The position numbers were made by a program, and so were the translations under genes. The notes beneath the pieces are model-generated. The model searched no databases. It was not told the origin of the DNA and worked only from the letters and a program-made list of their open reading frames with translations. From a virus, in IMG/VR virus record IMGVR_UViG_3300021087_000556, positions 1 to 32,995 of that record: a DNA stretch of 32,995 nt; one strand, 5' to 3'. Within the stretch, counting starts at the first letter, position 1. The number at the start of each line of letters is the position of its first letter. Positions 19,309 through 29,135 of the stretch are shown here, piece by piece.

Positions 19309-19331
19309 CTAAAAGTATTTAGTACTTTTAG
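19309..19331 (-). other. perfect 9-bp hairpin with late-box-like loop
   Basis: CTAAAAGTA and TACTTTTAG form a 9-bp perfect stem with the 5-base loop CTAAA, so the loop and arm include CTAAATA. The hairpin spans the stop codon of the 19328-19726 gene. All-AT arms with few following U argue against a classic terminator. Confidence 0.5.
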
Positions 19332-19726
19332 ATAGAGCCGTATACTTTAAAAGAACCTGTTTCTAATTTCTCCACTCTAAGGTTTAGTGTAACGACTTCT
19401 GTTTTTTCATCAAATTCGTCATGTGGAGTGTCTACGGATTTACCGAATTGGTCTCCATATCTTTTCATACTAACTTGATAATCACCCGATTCAGTAATTT
19501 CAGGGTGTTTATCAAGTGCGAGACCAAGTTGTCCTAGTTTTGCATCGATTTGACCGACAGCAGCACTAGGATTTAAAAATTCACTAACTGCACAATGTCC
19601 AAGAATGGCATTAATTCTTGATTTGACTTCAGGGTCGTTTATGTCATGGGGAACGTGTTGACTTTCTAAACCACCTACTTGTGTATGTGAATGAGTTTCT
19701 GCTATAAATTCTGCAAATTTTTTCAT
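19328..19726 (-). CDS. 132-residue protein with a T4-like capsid-targeting leader
   Basis: The N-terminus MKKFAEFIAE-THSH is very close to the T4 internal-protein capsid-targeting sequence MKTYQEFIAE, which directs proteins into the prohead and is cut after the Glu by the gp21 protease. The rest contains FGKSVDTPHDEFDE and a beta-rich C-terminus LNLRVEKLETGSFKVYGSI. This suggests an internal head protein; the enzymatic role, if any, is unknown. It follows two small virion-like genes. The leader match is seen directly; packaging is inference. Confidence 0.74.
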   Translation of the reverse strand: MKKFAEFIAETHSHTQVGGLESQHVPHDINDPEVKSRINAILGHCAVSEFLNPSAAVGQIDAKLGQLGLALDKHPEITESGDYQVSMKRYGDQFGKSVDTPHDEFDEKTEVVTLNLRVEKLETGSFKVYGSI

Positions 19727-22281: not shown

Positions 22282-22289
22282 TATTTATG
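22282..22289 (-). promoter_or_regulatory. late box CATAAATA 5 bases before a start codon
   Basis: CATAAATA-AAGAT-ATG. It overlaps the stop codon of the upstream gene. The T4 late start site normally lies 5-7 bases after this box, which would put it at the ATG. Confidence 0.5.
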
Positions 22290-22557: not shown

Positions 22558-24885
22558 CTAACTTTTAATAGATTTTATGAAGTCTCTTTTACCTGCTTTG
22601 TACATTTGCACAACACCACTATGGTCTGTTATCATGTACATTGACTGGATTGCTTCTAATTCTTTTGGTTTTAACCCTTTAATCTCTTTATTCCAGTAGT
22701 TCGCAATGTTCTTGTTAACTCCTTTCTTCTGAGGTATATATTGGTCGCCTTCAAGCTTTATATCACCTGCAATTGGTGAGTTTTCTTTGAACATGAATCC
22801 TACTTCAGGAACCTTTTGTTCTGTTCCATAGTTTGCATAGTTAAGTGCTTTTACAACGTCCTTATTCTTTGAGAGACCTTTCTTCATCTTCTCAATACCT
22901 TTGATTGCGTAGGTCATTGCGCCGCCATGGTCGAGTGCGAACTCAACTGCTTTTCTTACTTGTTTATCTCTGACCTTATGTCTTCGGAAGTATACTGAAA
23001 TTTCTTGTCCAGTAAGTTTAGAACCGTCCATTTTACCTTCTTTGATACCCAACTCTTTCATTTTTGCTTTAATGATAGGTCTTGCATCACCTTTTGGATT
23101 TTTCTGACCTGCTTTATATAAGTCATCAAACAAACCATCATCACCAATAAGGTCATACAGTTTGTCAGAGGCATCATCACCGTCTTTACCTAAGACAACT
23201 GGTTTCTTCAACAAGTCTTTTAATTCTTTCTTTTGTTTAGAAGTCTTTGGTAATGCCCATGTTCCTTCACTAATTGATTCACCGTCATGTTCAACATGAG
23301 CATAATCAACTCCAGGCTTTCCGTATTTCTTCTTAATCTTTTCTACTTTTTTGGCTAAAGGATTAAGACCTAAATCTTCATCTGATTCAATACCTACAGA
23401 AAAACCACTCTTACCACCTCTGAATTTTTCTTGGTCTATCGTAACATTTTTTGTTACACTTTTGATATATGGGTCTTTAAGGAAATTGTCTAAAGATTTC
23501 TTATTATAGAATACAAATCCCCAATTACTCTCACTAATTGATTCTTTGATTTTACCTTTCATTATATCGTCTAAATCTCTGTCTAACCAATCAATAAAAT
23601 CATCAGGGTCATCGGTGTTAACTTCACCATTATCCATTGCCCATTGCATTAAGTCGGCTTCTAATTTTTTGGATAGTTCTAGATTACCACTTCTTTGTAC
23701 TTTCTGAAGTTCTCTTTTGTGTTTACGAACGATGTCTTTCATCTTCATAGACCTTTCGTTTAAAGTTTCTTCTTTAACACCCATTACTTTATGTGCAATG
23801 TGTACTAGAGTTTGAATGTTTGATTTCTCCATTTTACCTTTGTTTTGGTCGTTTACTTTATCGTAAACTGTTAAAATCATAGATGCAGTGAACATATCTA
23901 ACATGATTCCACCAACTTTTGTTGCAGATTTAGTATCCACAATCTTTTTGATATCTGGCATTAAGTCTTTTGCTTCAAGTAATGAATCATAGTTTCTAAG
24001 AATTTCTTCACCCATTTTCATAGGTTTCTTCTTTTGACTGTAGTAATCTTTAAGAAATTCTTTTGCTTGTGCAATTGAAACTGGATAGTCTCTTGCGATT
24101 TCTTTTGCTGTCGCACCATTTTGAATGTCTTGGAATAGTTCACCCATTTTACCTTCTTCGAGGTCGTCATTGATTGATTCTGTAATACCAAGTTTTTTCA
24201 TCTCTTTTTCAATCTCTTTGTTGATTGATTTAAGAGCATTTAATGAAGGATTTGCAACCCCTGACTTGTTTTGAGCTTTGTCAATTGCTTGCATCTCTTT
24301 TGCTTTCTTCATTAGTAAGTCTGAGTATTTTGCATACTTACCTTCTTCTATTTCAACAGACTCACCCAGTACTTTAATTCCTTTACTCTTAAATTTTTTC
24401 AGAACTTCAAGACCAACTTTACCAGCATCATCACCTTGTATATACATATCTCCGTCCGACCAACTACTCATTCCACTACCTGTTATTTGGTCAGCATCAA
24501 TGTCTTCTATATCTAGTCTATCAGATACATCTTTGGTAAAATTAAAGATAGCATATGCATCCTTTTTCTTTATATTTCTAACAACAACATCATAATGATT
24601 CTTTTTTACAGGTTTATAGTTAGGTCTGCTTGCTTCTGATACAGTTTCTTCTAGGGGTTTAACGAAGTTATCGTCAAGTTCTTCATTGTAAGGGAAACCT
24701 TTAAGGGGATTTTGGAATACCTGCATGAAAGACTTTTTCTGTTTGTCTTTCTTCTCTTCAATCACTTCTTTGATACCTGCAAGATACTTCTCTACACTTT
24801 GGTTAGGTGTATCCTCTTGGTATGCCTTCAAAGTTTCAGGAGTTCCAACTTCGTGGACTCCATTATTGTGTTTATTTCCTGCCAT
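22558..24885 (-). CDS. 775-residue multi-segment virion-region protein with repeated protease-type sites
   Basis: The start at 24885 (MAGNKHNNGVHEVGTPETLK) is chosen because AAAAAAGGGGATAAT precedes it and the upstream gene ends at 24890. The protein is a string of small Lys/Glu-rich domains. Their joints carry (I/L/V)-x-E-(G/A/S): VSEA 82-85, IEEG 179-182, LEEG 242-245, LLEA 302-305, ISES 450-453, ISEG 538-541 and IKEG 614-617. T4 gp21 prohead protease cuts at such sequences. No enzyme domain is recognised. It may be a head-interior polyprotein cut into about eight pieces; processing is inferred. Confidence 0.74.
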   Translation of the reverse strand: MAGNKHNNGVHEVGTPETLKAYQEDTPNQSVEKYLAGIKEVIEEKKDKQKKSFMQVFQNPLKGFPYNEELDDNFVKPLEETVSEASRPNYKPVKKNHYDVVVRNIKKKDAYAIFNFTKDVSDRLDIEDIDADQITGSGMSSWSDGDMYIQGDDAGKVGLEVLKKFKSKGIKVLGESVEIEEGKYAKYSDLLMKKAKEMQAIDKAQNKSGVANPSLNALKSINKEIEKEMKKLGITESINDDLEEGKMGELFQDIQNGATAKEIARDYPVSIAQAKEFLKDYYSQKKKPMKMGEEILRNYDSLLEAKDLMPDIKKIVDTKSATKVGGIMLDMFTASMILTVYDKVNDQNKGKMEKSNIQTLVHIAHKVMGVKEETLNERSMKMKDIVRKHKRELQKVQRSGNLELSKKLEADLMQWAMDNGEVNTDDPDDFIDWLDRDLDDIMKGKIKESISESNWGFVFYNKKSLDNFLKDPYIKSVTKNVTIDQEKFRGGKSGFSVGIESDEDLGLNPLAKKVEKIKKKYGKPGVDYAHVEHDGESISEGTWALPKTSKQKKELKDLLKKPVVLGKDGDDASDKLYDLIGDDGLFDDLYKAGQKNPKGDARPIIKAKMKELGIKEGKMDGSKLTGQEISVYFRRHKVRDKQVRKAVEFALDHGGAMTYAIKGIEKMKKGLSKNKDVVKALNYANYGTEQKVPEVGFMFKENSPIAGDIKLEGDQYIPQKKGVNKNIANYWNKEIKGLKPKELEAIQSMYMITDHSGVVQMYKAGKRDFIKSIKS

Positions 24886-24889
24886 TTTA

Positions 24890-25783
24890 TTATCCCCTTT
24901 TTTGATTTGCATAATAGGCTGCAACTGCCATTTTTTTAATTTCTTCTGCACTTTGGTTTTTAAACTGAGGTGCATCTGAACTTTTGAAATCGTTTATAAA
25001 ATCTTTTATCGATGCGTTTTTACTTAACTTCTCTCTAAGTCTAGGTTCTGTTCTGTTATACTTCTGAGATACAACCGATAAATTACCCTTGTCATTATTT
25101 AATGGATTATTGTCCTTATGATGAACATCTTTCTTATCAAAAGGTTTTACCTTTCCTTCTTTTTCTAATGCTCTTCTTGCTCTTTTACGAGCTGCATTTT
25201 TTTCCATTTGTTCTGGCCTAGAATGATAGTTTGCTCTTTCTTTAGCATAGTTCCTACCTTCTTCTATATCATCACCAAACTTAAGGAACAACTTTCCTTT
25301 TTCTTGTTTCTTATCTGTAATCTTCGCACCAACAAATGACCCTAAAGTATTTAACATACCAAGACCTTTCTCTTGGTTCCTTGTAATCTCTTTACCAACT
25401 TGGTTATTAATCTTTTTCATAACCGTATCAATGATGTGTTGGATGTCTGAGACTAATTTACCTTCTTCAACAGACTCATTTGCAGATTGTTTCTCTGATG
25501 CTTTTCTTTCTGCATCACGTTTCTTTTTAATTGCAGTATCTACAGTTTCTTTCTCTTTTGCGCCTGCAAGTCTTTCATTTTCTCTATCATGTTCATCTTG
25601 AAGTGCTTCGACTTCTTGTTCATGTTTCGCTTTAAGTCTTTCCATTTCCTCAACTTGTTTCGCTTTTGCAAGTGCAGTCTGCACTGCAACGTTGTCTTCT
25701 TCTGCAAATAAAGACTTAAAGTTCTCTACTTTATCATCACGAGAACCTTTTTGTGCGTTAAGTATTTGGTTTAAAATATCCAT
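24890..25783 (-). CDS. coiled-coil protein with C-terminal HNH nuclease-like domain
   Basis: A 297-residue protein. Residues 1-100 form a charged coiled coil. VEEG (105-108) and IEEG (173-176) flank a middle segment. The C-terminal part has HSRPEQ and then DVHHKDNNPLNNDKGNLSVV (219-238), the His-His/Asn/Asn pattern of HNH endonucleases. Similar HNH segments occur in T4-like marine phage proteins. The HNH part starts just after the second protease-type site, so cleavage would free it. CATAAATA lies six bases before the ATG. Confidence 0.72.
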   Translation of the reverse strand: MDILNQILNAQKGSRDDKVENFKSLFAEEDNVAVQTALAKAKQVEEMERLKAKHEQEVEALQDEHDRENERLAGAKEKETVDTAIKKKRDAERKASEKQSANESVEEGKLVSDIQHIIDTVMKKINNQVGKEITRNQEKGLGMLNTLGSFVGAKITDKKQEKGKLFLKFGDDIEEGRNYAKERANYHSRPEQMEKNAARKRARRALEKEGKVKPFDKKDVHHKDNNPLNNDKGNLSVVSQKYNRTEPRLREKLSKNASIKDFINDFKSSDAPQFKNQSAEEIKKMAVAAYYANQKRG

Positions 25784-25788
25784 ATAAT

Positions 25789-27090
25789 CTATTTATGCTT
25801 TTTAGCAATTAACTCCTGTTCTTTCCATGCGAGAGCAACCTTATTAGTGGGGAATTTAGTACACCAAGTCATCATTGCACCATATAACTTAGACGCTTTA
25901 CCCTGTAATGATTGAACAGTATCGTCATTAACGATTTCTATAAAGTCCTTTTTAAATATTCTCTTGAATATATCTGCATTTTTCTCTACTGCCTCATGTT
26001 CTTTCACTAGAATCTCAGGTGGTAGTGTTCTTGCTCTCATTGAATTGAGTCGTTGTGCAAGGTCTAGACTTGTTTTAACAAATACCATTTTATACTCATA
26101 TCCTAATGCATCTAGATTCTTCTTATACCCCTGAATCTTACCTGCTTTTGCACTTGTAGTGTCAAAGATTAATCCCAGTCTTGCAGGAACATGGATATCC
26201 ATTTGTTTGGTTGCAATACCTTTTGCCTTTGCACGAAGTTTATCTCTTTCGGGGTTGACTGTTCCACTACCAGTCTTAGTCATTTTCATAGACATTTTTG
26301 CATCTTTCATAAGTCGTTCAAAGTGAGTGTCACTATTGATTGTTTTAAGTCCTAGTGCCTTAAGTGAGAGTGCATCAACCACTGTTGATTTACCTGAACC
26401 TGGCCCACCCATTAAGAAAACTGCTTTGAATATGCCTGGGTCGTAAACACCTTCTTGTAATAGGTCTTCAAACATATAGTTAGGCATTGTTTCTTCTTTA
26501 ATACCCATACCACTTCTAACTTCTTTGTATAGTAGTTCTTGGTCTCTCAAGTTATTAGATGCAACACCTGTTTTAAATGATTCAAAGTCACCCTCTTCTG
26601 CGGCTGCTCTCATTTTACTTGCAGACATTCCTGATACTCCTTCTGCATCAGGGTCTCTTTGACCTGCACTAATAATCTCTATTGAATCAAATTTATAATA
26701 CCCGTGTCTTCCTTTAGAACCATTGTATTTTTTGATAAGAGTTTCAAACTCTCTGACTCGGTCTGAACCTGCAACCATACGAAATTCTCTATACCCTTGA
26801 TTGTATAATTCTGTAACTATTTCAAAAATTGTTCTTGCAGGTGTTTTTACAATTCCCACCTTTTTACCAAAGAATTTTTTCATCCATTTTTGTTTTGTAT
26901 TATAGTCTAATGGATTTGATTTTTTATCATTTGAGTGAGACATAAACACTAGAGGTTTAAAACCACCACCTGTTGCCTTAACAACTTTCTCTACCAATGC
27001 ACCATGTCCAATAGTAGGTGGATTAAATCGACCAAAGGCTATTACTACCTTTTGGGTTGAACTTTCATTAAATTTTCTAAACGTTTTCAT
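25789..27090 (-). CDS. cytidylyltransferase-like (NMNAT-type) domain fused to a P-loop kinase
   Basis: A 433-residue fusion. Residues about 13-180 are a nucleotidyltransferase of the cytidylyltransferase/NMN adenylyltransferase fold: GRFNPPTIGHG (20-30) for HxGH and MSASKMR (155-161) for the ISSTxxR motif. Residues about 220-430 are a P-loop kinase-like domain with GGPGSGKS (228-235). The order recalls NadR, so NAD synthesis is one possibility. LLQEG (210-214) sits exactly between the domains. The N-terminus MKTFRKFNES resembles the T4 capsid-targeting leader. It overlaps the upstream gene by 14 bases. Confidence 0.8.
   Translation of the reverse strand: MKTFRKFNESSTQKVVIAFGRFNPPTIGHGALVEKVVKATGGGFKPLVFMSHSNDKKSNPLDYNTKQKWMKKFFGKKVGIVKTPARTIFEIVTELYNQGYREFRMVAGSDRVREFETLIKKYNGSKGRHGYYKFDSIEIISAGQRDPDAEGVSGMSASKMRAAAEEGDFESFKTGVASNNLRDQELLYKEVRSGMGIKEETMPNYMFEDLLQEGVYDPGIFKAVFLMGGPGSGKSTVVDALSLKALGLKTINSDTHFERLMKDAKMSMKMTKTGSGTVNPERDKLRAKAKGIATKQMDIHVPARLGLIFDTTSAKAGKIQGYKKNLDALGYEYKMVFVKTSLDLAQRLNSMRARTLPPEILVKEHEAVEKNADIFKRIFKKDFIEIVNDDTVQSLQGKASKLYGAMMTWCTKFPTNKVALAWKEQELIAKKHK
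25790..25797 (-). promoter_or_regulatory. late box CATAAATA 6 bases before the HNH-protein start
   Basis: CATAAATA-GATTAT-ATG, overlapping the stop codon (TAG) of the fusion gene. No ribosome-binding sequence intervenes. It has the same layout as at 22282, 32478 and 32968. Confidence 0.5.
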
Positions 27091-27271
27091 CTTGTTTCAT
27101 TATCCTAAACTTTAATAGTGGTCTACCATTAATTGTAATATCCCCTTTCTCATTTTTCTCTATTGTTTTAACAACCATTTTTTTGTTTTTAAACTTACCA
27201 CCAAGAACTACATCACCTATACTAATAGGAATGTGAATAGTTTCTGTCATATGTTCCTTAAATGATTTCAT
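27077..27271 (-). CDS. 64-residue protein with capsid-targeting-like leader and small beta barrel
   Basis: MKSFKEHMTE-TIHI is similar in spacing and residues to the T4 leader MKTYQEFIAE. After it, IGDVVLGGKFKNKKMVVKTI looks like a KOW/SH3-like barrel. GGAGCATT precedes the ATG. It overlaps both neighbours. A head-interior or nucleic-acid-associated role is inferred. Confidence 0.7.
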   Translation of the reverse strand: MKSFKEHMTETIHIPISIGDVVLGGKFKNKKMVVKTIEKNEKGDITINGRPLLKFRIMKQDENV

Positions 27272-27360
27272 AATGCTCCATAAGCTATTATTCCAAGAAA
27301 AACAAACTCATCAAGTAACATTATTCCTACAAATATTTTAAATAGTAATAACTTCATCAT
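27268..27360 (-). CDS. 30-residue membrane micropeptide
   Basis: MMKLLLFKIFVGIMLLDEFV, then FLGIIAYGAL: two short hydrophobic stretches around an Asp-Glu pair. ATG at 27360 overlaps the stop of the ligase-like gene (ATGATG), and its TGA overlaps the next ATG. Such precise packing with both neighbours supports a real gene. Confidence 0.6.
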   Translation of the reverse strand: MMKLLLFKIFVGIMLLDEFVFLGIIAYGAL

Positions 27361-28562
27361 TTGTCCCATGCCTTAGCGGCGTTAAAATTGTTTTGACTGA
27401 ACTCCATTCTATCCACAAGTTTTACTGCAGAACCGTCTGAGTCGATTGCAACATAACCTTCGGGGTTTACAACCTTGAATCCTTTATCAGTCTTTACAAA
27501 AGTTCCTATACTCTTTACTCTATTTAGAGCAGTCACAATCAATGATTTTGAATCTATCAAATGTCCTTGAAATTTTGCAAGGTTGTCTACCATTTTTGAA
27601 ATTGTTCTTAAGTCTCTCATGATATCTTTACCAATCTGTATCTTGATATCTTTAGTCTTTTGTGTTTTAACTTTTGCGACTATTTTATCCTTCCAGTAGT
27701 TCTCAACGTGTGTAAGGTAGTCTTTTCCATTGGGATTCCATTTATTATTACGGATAAGGGTGTTAGTGTATGTTTTGTACGATGCACCTGCAGCTCCTTT
27801 TGAATTAAGAACTCCCTGTACGTCATTGAACTTTTTGAGGTCTTTCCCAGTGATACCATGAAATGCTTTACCTGTATTAGTAAGTGCTTGTGTAAGTTTA
27901 AGTGTTTCTTGTGCAGTCATGTTTCCATAACCAGTAGTGTCTTTGTAAGTTGCATCGTCTTGCCAAACCTTAGACGATGAAGGTGGAAGTTTTGCACCGA
28001 ATGATGCAGACAAACCTTCGATTGTTGAACCCTTGTAAGTTGTGTGCCAAACTACACCTAGTGTCGCACTTCCTATTTCTTTTCCTAACTTCGAGTCTTT
28101 CTGAACTGCGTACATAATTGTGTTTGGTTGGAATGTAATGTACTCCTTTCCGTCCATTTTAGTATTACTTTTATCTCCCGAAGTAAACATTAAGTCTCCT
28201 TGCAGGATTTCTTTCATTCCGACACCTGAAAAGGCGTTGAATGCTTCAGTGAATTTTGTTTTGAGTGTACCGTTTAAGTCGGAAGTGTCATTGATTTCTT
28301 TTATACTAGAATAGTACAATGCACCACCTTTATTGAATAGTGATTTCTTTGCGATAAAGAATTTTCCTGTTTCGGGGTGAGGGCCACACCAAATTGCAGG
28401 AGCACCGTCCCACTTAACAGTCATGTTGACACGACCTGATGCATTACCTTTCATCATATCTCTTAACTCTCTTAAGAAATTGATTGATGCACGACCACCT
28501 GCGATGCCATAGTTAATGATTTCGTCTTCGAGGTGTTCTAAATGTAAGTTCTTTCCAGCCAT
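27357..28562 (-). CDS. covalent nucleotidyltransferase (RNA/DNA ligase-like) protein, DUF6267-type
   Basis: The ATG at 28562 (MAGKNLHLEHLEDEI) is used; a TTG at 28580 could extend it by six residues. It is 401 residues. Ligase-type motifs appear in order: K50-W-D-G53 (motif I, lysine attacked by NTP), QGDLMF at 121-126 (motif III-like), EGYVA at 368-372 (motif IV-like) and VKLVDR at 380-385 (motif V-like). The KWDGAPAIW segment is characteristic of a phage family I know as DUF6267. The activity is unproven; it may seal or cap RNA or DNA ends. It has its own promoter region and sits between virion-type genes. Confidence 0.72.
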   Translation of the reverse strand: MAGKNLHLEHLEDEIINYGIAGGRASINFLRELRDMMKGNASGRVNMTVKWDGAPAIWCGPHPETGKFFIAKKSLFNKGGALYYSSIKEINDTSDLNGTLKTKFTEAFNAFSGVGMKEILQGDLMFTSGDKSNTKMDGKEYITFQPNTIMYAVQKDSKLGKEIGSATLGVVWHTTYKGSTIEGLSASFGAKLPPSSSKVWQDDATYKDTTGYGNMTAQETLKLTQALTNTGKAFHGITGKDLKKFNDVQGVLNSKGAAGASYKTYTNTLIRNNKWNPNGKDYLTHVENYWKDKIVAKVKTQKTKDIKIQIGKDIMRDLRTISKMVDNLAKFQGHLIDSKSLIVTALNRVKSIGTFVKTDKGFKVVNPEGYVAIDSDGSAVKLVDRMEFSQNNFNAAKAWDK

Positions 28563-28594: not shown

Positions 28595-28623
28595 AGAATA
28601 CCATACTATTTATACATTTGCAA
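28595..28623 (-). promoter_or_regulatory. sigma70-type promoter of the ligase-like gene
   Basis: TTGCAA, a 17-base spacer and TATTCT. The spacer contains the late box at 28607-28614, so the gene could be read both early and late. It directly follows the terminator at 28635-28659. Confidence 0.5.
28607..28614 (-). promoter_or_regulatory. T4 late promoter box TATAAATA
   Basis: An exact TATAAATA on the minus strand, about 44 bases before the ATG at 28562, within the intergenic space between the terminator and the ligase-like gene. Confidence 0.6.
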
Positions 28624-29127: not shown

Positions 29128-29135
29128 TATTTATA
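29128..29135 (-). promoter_or_regulatory. T4 late promoter box TATAAATA
   Basis: Exact consensus, 32 bases before the ATG at 29095, overlapping the stop codon of the 58-residue gene. The start has a normal ribosome-binding site. Confidence 0.68.

What the first reader, a model, noticed from the sequence alone, without database searches (positions are those of the whole stretch)
25789..27090. A nucleotide-metabolism enzyme pair may be virion cargo, split at LLQEG
The protein joins an NMNAT-like nucleotidyltransferase to a P-loop kinase, recalling NadR. It has a capsid-targeting-like leader, and its interdomain linker carries LLQEG, a prohead-protease-type site. If both are used, the phage would inject two separate enzymes at infection, perhaps acting on host NAD(P) or on nucleotide pools before any phage gene is expressed. 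Packaging an NAD-type enzyme would be unusual.
Basis: partly seen in the sequence, partly recalled or inferred. Interest (0 to 1): 0.8.

Follow-up and report, generated by a model that had tools for sequence, protein, structure and literature searches.

The report
Phage-packed enzyme pair, probably protease-split
This marine T4-like phage gene joins two enzymes in one chain and carries both a packaging tag and a conserved cut site like those phage T4 uses to load proteins into its head, so the phage probably packs both enzymes, cuts them apart and delivers them with its DNA.

Summary
The 433-aa protein (25789-27090, minus strand) is an adenylyl/cytidylyltransferase (residues ~12-199) plus a P-loop kinase (~219-433). 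The linker is predicted disordered and holds L211-Q-E213|G214. One such motif is expected by chance in this protein; conservation makes the case. P3 is L/I/V and P1-P1' is E-G in 81/81 fusion-set sequences and 78/78 stand-alone kinases, with P2 variable. Most stand-alone kinases start 6-16 residues before that site (MKTFKALIQE|G), so the "linker" is the leader end of a once-separate protein. The transferase family carries a T4-type capsid-targeting leader (typically MKSFFQFLSE|A) in about 77 of 80 distant relatives. Published virion mass spectrometry detects leader-bearing relatives in S-CREM2 and S-SZBM1, and family members in S-SM1 and S-SCSM1. The operon lies behind a conserved late-promoter-like site. 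Corrections: packaging of this transferase family was already reported for cyanophages; NadR identity is not supported (kinase nearer AAA_33/zeta/PNK/PSTK); and this sequence's own leader end (F-N-E|S) departs from L/I-X-E. Best reading: a T4-type virion cargo built as a two-enzyme polyprotein cut by the prohead protease. Packaging and cutting are inferred, not shown for this phage.

The parts
25789..27090 (-). Gene for the 433-aa nucleotidyltransferase-kinase fusion
27064..27090 (-). Residues 1-9, MKTFRKFNE: capsid-targeting-like leader (F4, F7); possible cut after E9 (F-N-E|S, weak match to L/I-X-E)
   Evidence: alignment with relatives (MKTFNRFLSEA etc.) and T4 IPII/IPIII MKTYQEFIAE|A; pLDDT <50
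26494..27057 (-). Residues 12-199: HIGH-superfamily nucleotidyltransferase (GRFNPPTIGH, SASKMR), PPAT/NMNAT-type fold
   Evidence: Pfam PF01467; VIA Z up to 14 to PPAT and 13.3 to NMNAT
26428..26493 (-). Residues 200-221: interdomain linker with an internal leader-like segment (MPNYMFEDLLQEGVYDPGIF)
   Evidence: residues 201-218 pLDDT <50; end matches leaders of stand-alone kinases
26449..26460 (-). Residues 211-214, L-Q-E|G: conserved prohead-protease-type site
   Evidence: 81/81 fusion-set and 78/78 stand-alone sequences keep [LIV]-x-E|G
25792..26448 (-). Residues 215-433: P-loop kinase (GGPGSGKS; AAA_33/Zeta/PNK/PSTK-like)
27077..27271 (-). 64-aa ORF overlapping the start of the fusion gene; starts MKSFKEHMTE
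   Evidence: no PHROG match
27357..28562 (-). DUF6267 (PF19782), first gene of the presumed operon; RNA-ligase-like motifs K50-W-D-G, P-E-G, V-K-L-V-D-R
   Evidence: Pfam 309 bits; invariant motifs; ligases prominent but at low Z, 4.5-5.6
28607..28614 (-). TATAAATA, T4-late-promoter-like, 45-52 nt upstream of the DUF6267 ATG
   Evidence: [TCG]ATAAATA within 120 nt upstream in 25 of 29 distinct relatives; 0.0375 expected per 120 nt

Best explanation
The gene encodes a head-cargo polyprotein of a T4-like marine phage. It is probably transcribed late, with DUF6267, from a TATAAATA-type promoter (inferred from a conserved motif). The N-terminal leader targets the chain to the prohead core, as T4 IPIII residues 4 and 7 do (inferred from leader similarity; family members detected in virions by published MS). 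The gp21-type prohead protease then cuts at L-Q-E213|G214, and perhaps after E9, releasing a nucleotidyltransferase and a kinase that enter the cell with the DNA (cutting inferred from comparison; delivery inferred by analogy with T4 internal proteins). What they act on is open. The kinase resembles enzymes acting on RNA/DNA ends, tRNA or nucleotides; the transferase resembles NMNAT/PPAT.
For: Site: [LIV]-x-E|G in 81/81 fusion-set and 78/78 stand-alone kinases with P2 free. Most stand-alone kinases start 6-16 residues before it with variable leaders (MKTFKALIQEG, MKVNSFIQHLSEG, MKTYDQIRYLEEG); Melnitz MKTFAELQEG, Atu_ph07 SEVTEG inside a large protein, Cronobacter S13 MNFKEFCQLDEA, HTVC008M MIPFILKEG. 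Sites travel with domains: in L207 (1181 aa) four of the five [LIV]xE[AGS] motifs precede the kinase, PAP2, NTP_transf_2 and CTP_transf_like domains. Leader: T4-type in about 77 of 80 distant transferases, mostly ~100 aa or more before the fold; T4 IPII/IPIII MKTYQEFIAE|A and gp23 FLTE|A (cut position per PMC9958956); T4 gp21 cuts after L/I-X-E and CTS residues 4 and 7 direct targeting. MS: S-CREM2 transferase (MKNFSSFLTEA) and S-SZBM1 transferase (MRFRQFIIEA) in virions; also S-SM1, S-SCSM1. A leader matrix trained without S-CREM2 ranks 8 virion proteins in its top 10 (p = 2.4e-4), among them SAM hydrolase, APH kinase and Cas9. Genomes carrying the fusion encode Peptidase_S77 and Gp23, with LEE|A in the capsid protein near the T4 cut position. 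Linker disordered. Late-promoter-like site.
Against: No proteomics of this phage; all MS evidence is from relatives, whose authors allow for carry-over in CsCl purification (PMC10665884, PMC9602691). No published peptide shows a cut at the linker. The stand-alone or fused kinase has not been seen in a virion. This protein's own leader end is F-N-E|S, outside L/I-X-E. HTVC008M's transferase has a degenerate leader (MKTLKELLRKK) and two fusions (L076, L077) lack one. E-G-V-Y-D-P-G is conserved beyond the site, so part of the conservation could be structural. The top-k choice was not fixed beforehand (p from 0.09 at top 5 to 0.0002 at top 10; rank test 0.006).
Confidence: 0.72

Rival explanations
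1. It is packaged but stays one bifunctional chain: E-G-V-Y-D-P-G-I-F is the structural N-cap of the kinase and is not cut.
For: Conservation continues past the site (V215 Y216 D217 G219 F221 K222 invariant).
Against: Upstream residues keep only a hydrophobic P3 and E while P2 is free; the equivalent point ends variable leaders in stand-alone kinases; Cronobacter S13 has L-D-E|A at a different spacing; linker disordered.
Confidence: 0.15
2. It is not cargo: a soluble late enzyme made for nucleotide or NAD metabolism in the infected cell; virion detection of relatives is carry-over.
For: Authors of the MS studies raise carry-over (PMC10665884, PMC9602691); two fusions lack the leader.
Against: A T4-type leader is near-universal in the family and separate from the fold; the same leader marks other non-structural virion proteins of S-CREM2; family members detected in several independent proteomes.
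Confidence: 0.12
3. On function: the cargo repairs RNA. The kinase is a 5'-end or tRNA kinase working with the ligase-like DUF6267 protein of the same operon, as T4 Pnkp and Rnl1 repair cleaved tRNA (compatible with the packaging model above).
For: Kinase matches AAA_33, PHROG polynucleotide kinase (E 5e-7), PSTK (E 2.5e-10 for HTVC008M gp129) and PNK folds; DUF6267 has KWDG, EG and K motifs, and T4 Rnl1 is the top Foldseek row (E 0.054), with many ligases at Z 4.5-5.6.
Against: Fold ties: dephospho-CoA, adenylate and other kinases score alike; the ligase match is below significance; the transferase has no obvious role in RNA repair; DUF6267 has no leader in this clade.
Confidence: 0.3
4. On function: the pair makes or salvages a cofactor, NadR-like (NR kinase + NMNAT) or CoA-synthase-like (PPAT + dephospho-CoA kinase) (compatible with the packaging model above).
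For: Transferase fold PPAT Z 14.2, NMNAT 13.3; kinase aligns to dephospho-CoA kinase Z 12.8; S-x-S-x-x-R motif as in NMNAT-type enzymes; published annotation as NMNAT.
Against: TIGR01526 19.7 against 341, TIGR00482 17.2 against 112, dephospho-CoA kinase 13.2 against 65; NadR aligns with inconsistent domain placement (rmsd 12).
Confidence: 0.25

Closest known systems
T4 internal proteins IPI-IPIII and Alt (CTS cargo cut by gp21)
   Same: Short N-terminal leader with aromatic residues 4 and 7; L/I-X-E sites; relatives found in virions.
   Different: Here the cargo is a metabolic-type enzyme pair, and the conserved site lies between two folded enzymes rather than only at a terminus.
Cyanophage cytidylyltransferase / NMNAT-like virion protein (T4-GC190)
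   Same: Homologous transferase domain, same leader type, detected in virions by MS (PMC3037559, PMC9602691, PMC9146016, PMC10665884).
   Different: Cyanophage forms read here (S-CREM2, S-SZBM1) lack the kinase; the window's clade fuses it behind a cut site.
NadR (NMNAT + ribosylnicotinamide kinase)
   Same: A HIGH-type transferase followed by a P-loop kinase.
   Different: Far below the NadR model cut-off; kinase of another subfamily; no targeting leader or cut site is part of NadR.
T4 Pnkp / PSTK / AAA_33 kinases
   Same: Walker A, the N-[ST]-D segment and the R-x-R ... P lid-like segment; AAA_33 over cut-off.
   Different: Substrate unknown; no activity shown.
Giant-phage head proteins cut by gp175/gp245 (phiKZ, SPN3US)
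   Same: Ejected head proteins processed after Glu by a gp21-like protease (PMC10052503, PMC9026906).
   Different: There the reported sites remove propeptides; release of two folded enzymes from one chain was not described in the passages read.

Membership tests
T4-type CTS cargo | Aromatic residues at leader positions 4 and 7 | tested here: met
   MKTF4RKF7; T4 MKTY4QEF7; role of 4 and 7 from PMC9026906
T4-type CTS cargo | L/I-X-E at the end of the N-terminal leader | tested here: not met
   F7-N8-E9|S in the window; met in most relatives (FLSE|A, FLTE|A). S-CREM2 ORF15, a virion protein, has the same F-N-E-S
T4-type CTS cargo | L/I-X-E site at the start of a mature folded product | tested here: met
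   L211-Q-E213|G214 before the kinase
T4-type CTS cargo | gp21-type protease encoded by the same phage | tested here: inconclusive
   Window is a 33-kb fragment in which no head genes were seen; two longer contigs with the fusion have Peptidase_S77 (E 3.5e-39, 1.3e-38)
T4-type CTS cargo | Present in the virion and delivered to the cell | not testable with these tools
   Only published MS of relatives
NadR | TIGR01526 score over 341.15 bits | tested here: not met
   19.7 bits, residues 14-76 only
NMNAT | GxFxPxHxGH-type and SxTxxR-type motifs | tested here: met
   GRFNPPTIGH and SASKMR, largely invariant, in variant form
NMNAT | TIGR00482 score over 112.45 bits | tested here: not met
   17.2 bits
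NMNAT | Adenylylation of NMN or NaMN | not testable with these tools
   needs an assay
AAA_33 / PNK-type kinases | PF13671 over gathering score | tested here: met
   41.8 against 27
AAA_33 / PNK-type kinases | 5'-OH polynucleotide kinase activity | not testable with these tools
   needs an assay
Covalent ligase-type nucleotidyltransferases (for DUF6267) | Motif I KxDG and motif IV/V-like EG and K | tested here: met
   K50-W-D-G53, P367-E-G369 and K381 invariant in 28 sequences
Covalent ligase-type nucleotidyltransferases (for DUF6267) | Ligase fold | tested here: inconclusive
   T4 Rnl1 top in Foldseek at E 0.054; ligases at Z 4.5-5.6

The most novel reading that the evidence does not exclude
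Marine T4-like phages build modular enzyme polyproteins for head delivery: folded enzymes are joined with an L/I/V-x-E site before each, swapped and reordered between phages (transferase-kinase here; kinase-PAP2-nucleotidyltransferase-transferase in L207; adenylate kinase-kinase in L228), loaded through one leader, and cut into separate injected enzymes by the prohead protease.
Probability: 0.5. Interest if true: 0.78.

Novelty: new variant of a known kind. Interest (0 to 1): 0.62.

Why it matters
It gives a sequence rule (T4-type leader plus L/I/V-x-E sites) that links a near-universal, puzzling cyanophage virion enzyme to a known packaging route, and predicts further injected enzymes in abundant marine phages, including published but unexplained virion proteins (Cas9, SAM hydrolase and kinases of S-CREM2). 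If the cut is used, the prohead protease acts as a polyprotein processor that delivers several host-modifying enzymes before any phage gene is expressed.

Tried and rejected
Motif counting in the single protein: one site found, 0.99 expected, so no evidence alone. Loose regex tests of leaders in S-CREM2 gave weak or no significance (p 0.03, 0.24, 0.08); the matrix test did better. TATAAATA in the window is not enriched as a count (3 found, 3.2 expected); the case rests on conserved position and strand bias (265 against 2). NadR membership rejected by score. phmmer of DUF6267 against the PDB found nothing. No paper in the library ties a capsid targeting sequence to cyanophage enzymes; the one hit is the T4 review. 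No paper mentions DUF6267. DUF6267 as co-cargo in this clade: no leader, though many relatives beside stand-alone kinases have one (MYSFKQYLNE|A). In S-SZBM1 the matrix ranks genes 191 and 192 above the detected transferase; neither is in its shallower proteome list. HTVC008M's transferase leader scores poorly.

Full report
What is there. The window is a 32,995-base virus record; no head genes were seen among its translated ORFs. Its relatives include Pelagibacter phage HTVC008M and Methylophilales phage Melnitz (Kyanoviridae). The minus-strand ORF 25789-27090 encodes 433 aa. Residues 17-116 match CTP_transf_like and 224-355 AAA_33, both over Pfam's cut-offs. Eighty IMG/VR loci hold relatives of the fusion; the 27 others in a 28-sequence alignment are 54-90% identical to it.

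Is the site more than chance? In the single protein, no: [LIV]xE[AGS] occurs once against 0.99 expected. Across relatives, yes: in 81 fusion-set sequences and in 78 stand-alone kinases P3 is always L, I or V, P1-P1' always E-G, while P2 takes at least eight residues in each set. T4 gp21 cuts after L/I-X-E (PMC9026906).

Where the site comes from. In HTVC008M the two enzymes are separate genes; the kinase starts MIPFILKEGLYDPGIFKA. Melnitz has MKTFAELQEGVYDPNIFKA. The stand-alone kinases found in IMG/VR mostly start 6-16 residues before the same E|G, with leaders of varied sequence and length. The linker of the fusion therefore looks like the leader end of a once-independent protein. Other fusions repeat the pattern: L207 joins kinase, PAP2, a nucleotidyltransferase (NTP_transf_2, below cut-off) and the transferase in one 1181-aa chain, and four of its five [LIV]xE[AGS] motifs fall before those domains; L228 has adenylate kinase, then FITE|G, then the kinase; Atu_ph07 has SEVTE|G before the kinase in a larger protein.

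The leader. T4 IPII and IPIII start MKTYQEFIAE|A, and gp23 has FLTE|A at residue 65 (cut position PMC9958956). In T4, residues 4 and 7 direct targeting and 8 and 10 processing (PMC9026906). Fusion relatives start MKTFNRFLSEA, MKSFNKFLTEA and the like; about 77 of 80 distant transferases start with MKSFFQFLSEA-type leaders, usually about 100 residues or more before the fold. The window's protein keeps F4 and F7 but reads F-N-E|S at the leader end, so N-terminal trimming is less sure than the linker cut.

Link to virions. Published MS found the transferase family in virions of S-SM1, S-SCSM1, S-SZBM1 and S-CREM2. The S-CREM2 and S-SZBM1 proteins bear the leader (MKNFSSFLTEA, MRFRQFIIEA). A matrix trained on T4 and IMG/VR leaders only, applied to S-CREM2, puts 8 of 52 virion proteins in its top 10 of 213 (p 2.4e-4; rank test p 0.006), among them the transferase, APH kinase, Cas9 and SAM hydrolase. 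Authors caution that such proteins could be carried over in purification.

Protease, structure, expression. Two longer contigs with the fusion encode Peptidase_S77 and Gp23; their capsid proteins carry LEE|A near the T4 cut position, and HTVC008M and S-CREM2 have FLGE|I and LLTE|A there. AlphaFold2 shows two folds with leader and linker under pLDDT 50 (mean 73.6). A [TCG]ATAAATA site lies within 120 nt upstream of DUF6267, the presumed first gene, in 25 of 29 distinct relatives (0.0375 expected); the motif is 265 to 2 in favour of the gene strand. Part of that bias could come from codon use.

What the enzymes do. The transferase fold ties with PPAT and NMNAT (Z about 13-14), the kinase with PSTK, PNK, dephospho-CoA and other kinases. 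NadR and NMNAT models score far below their cut-offs. Upstream DUF6267 has invariant ligase-type motifs and weak ligase fold matches. An RNA-end role is therefore as open as a cofactor role; neither is shown.

Verdict. Shown here: ORF, domains, predicted-disordered linker, conserved site and leader, co-occurring protease in relatives. Shown by others: transferase family in virions. Inferred: packaging of this fusion, cutting at 213/214, delivery, substrates.

Noticed in passing
L088/L084 (S-CREM2 ORF6, 12, 13, 14, 15, 136, 154): Published virion proteins incl. SAM hydrolase, Cas9 (LRFASFMAEA at residues 17-26) and APH/ChoK-like kinase carry T4-type capsid-targeting-like leaders.
   Followed up: partly
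L207:1069-4653: 1181-aa chain: kinase, PAP2, pol-beta-type nucleotidyltransferase, HIGH transferase, with L/I-x-E sites between domains.
   Followed up: partly
window 22558-24975 (-): 805-aa protein without Pfam match has 10 [LIV]xE[AGS] motifs against 2.3 expected; may be a multi-cut core or cargo protein.
   Followed up: no
window 19328-19726 (-): 132-aa protein starting MKKFAEFIAETHSHTQ, a clear T4-type leader; the family repeats it in many relatives.
   Followed up: no
L228:15-1259, L236:3-1133: Adenylate kinase fused ahead of the phage kinase with FITE|G or YLNE|G between.
   Followed up: no
L093:758-4590 (Atu_ph07): Two neighbouring proteins with YRGM...STS-type segments that recall ADP-ribosyltransferases (by eye only); one also contains the kinase behind VTE|G.
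   Followed up: no
L076:2013-2732, L077:5534-6253: Where the fusion lacks its leader, an overlapping upstream 240-aa gene with an IIDGHHR (ParB-like) segment carries one (MQTFKYFISEA).
   Followed up: partly
L262:22311-23125 (S-SZBM1 genes 191, 192): Beside head genes; the strongest leaders of that genome (MKSFKSFLSES, MKTFKQYITEA), but not in its proteome list.
   Followed up: no
window 28607-28614, 25790-25797, 22282-22289, 29128-29135 (-): [TCG]ATAAATA late-promoter-like sites on the gene strand just upstream of several ORFs; 7 on the minus strand, 1 on the plus strand.
   Followed up: partly
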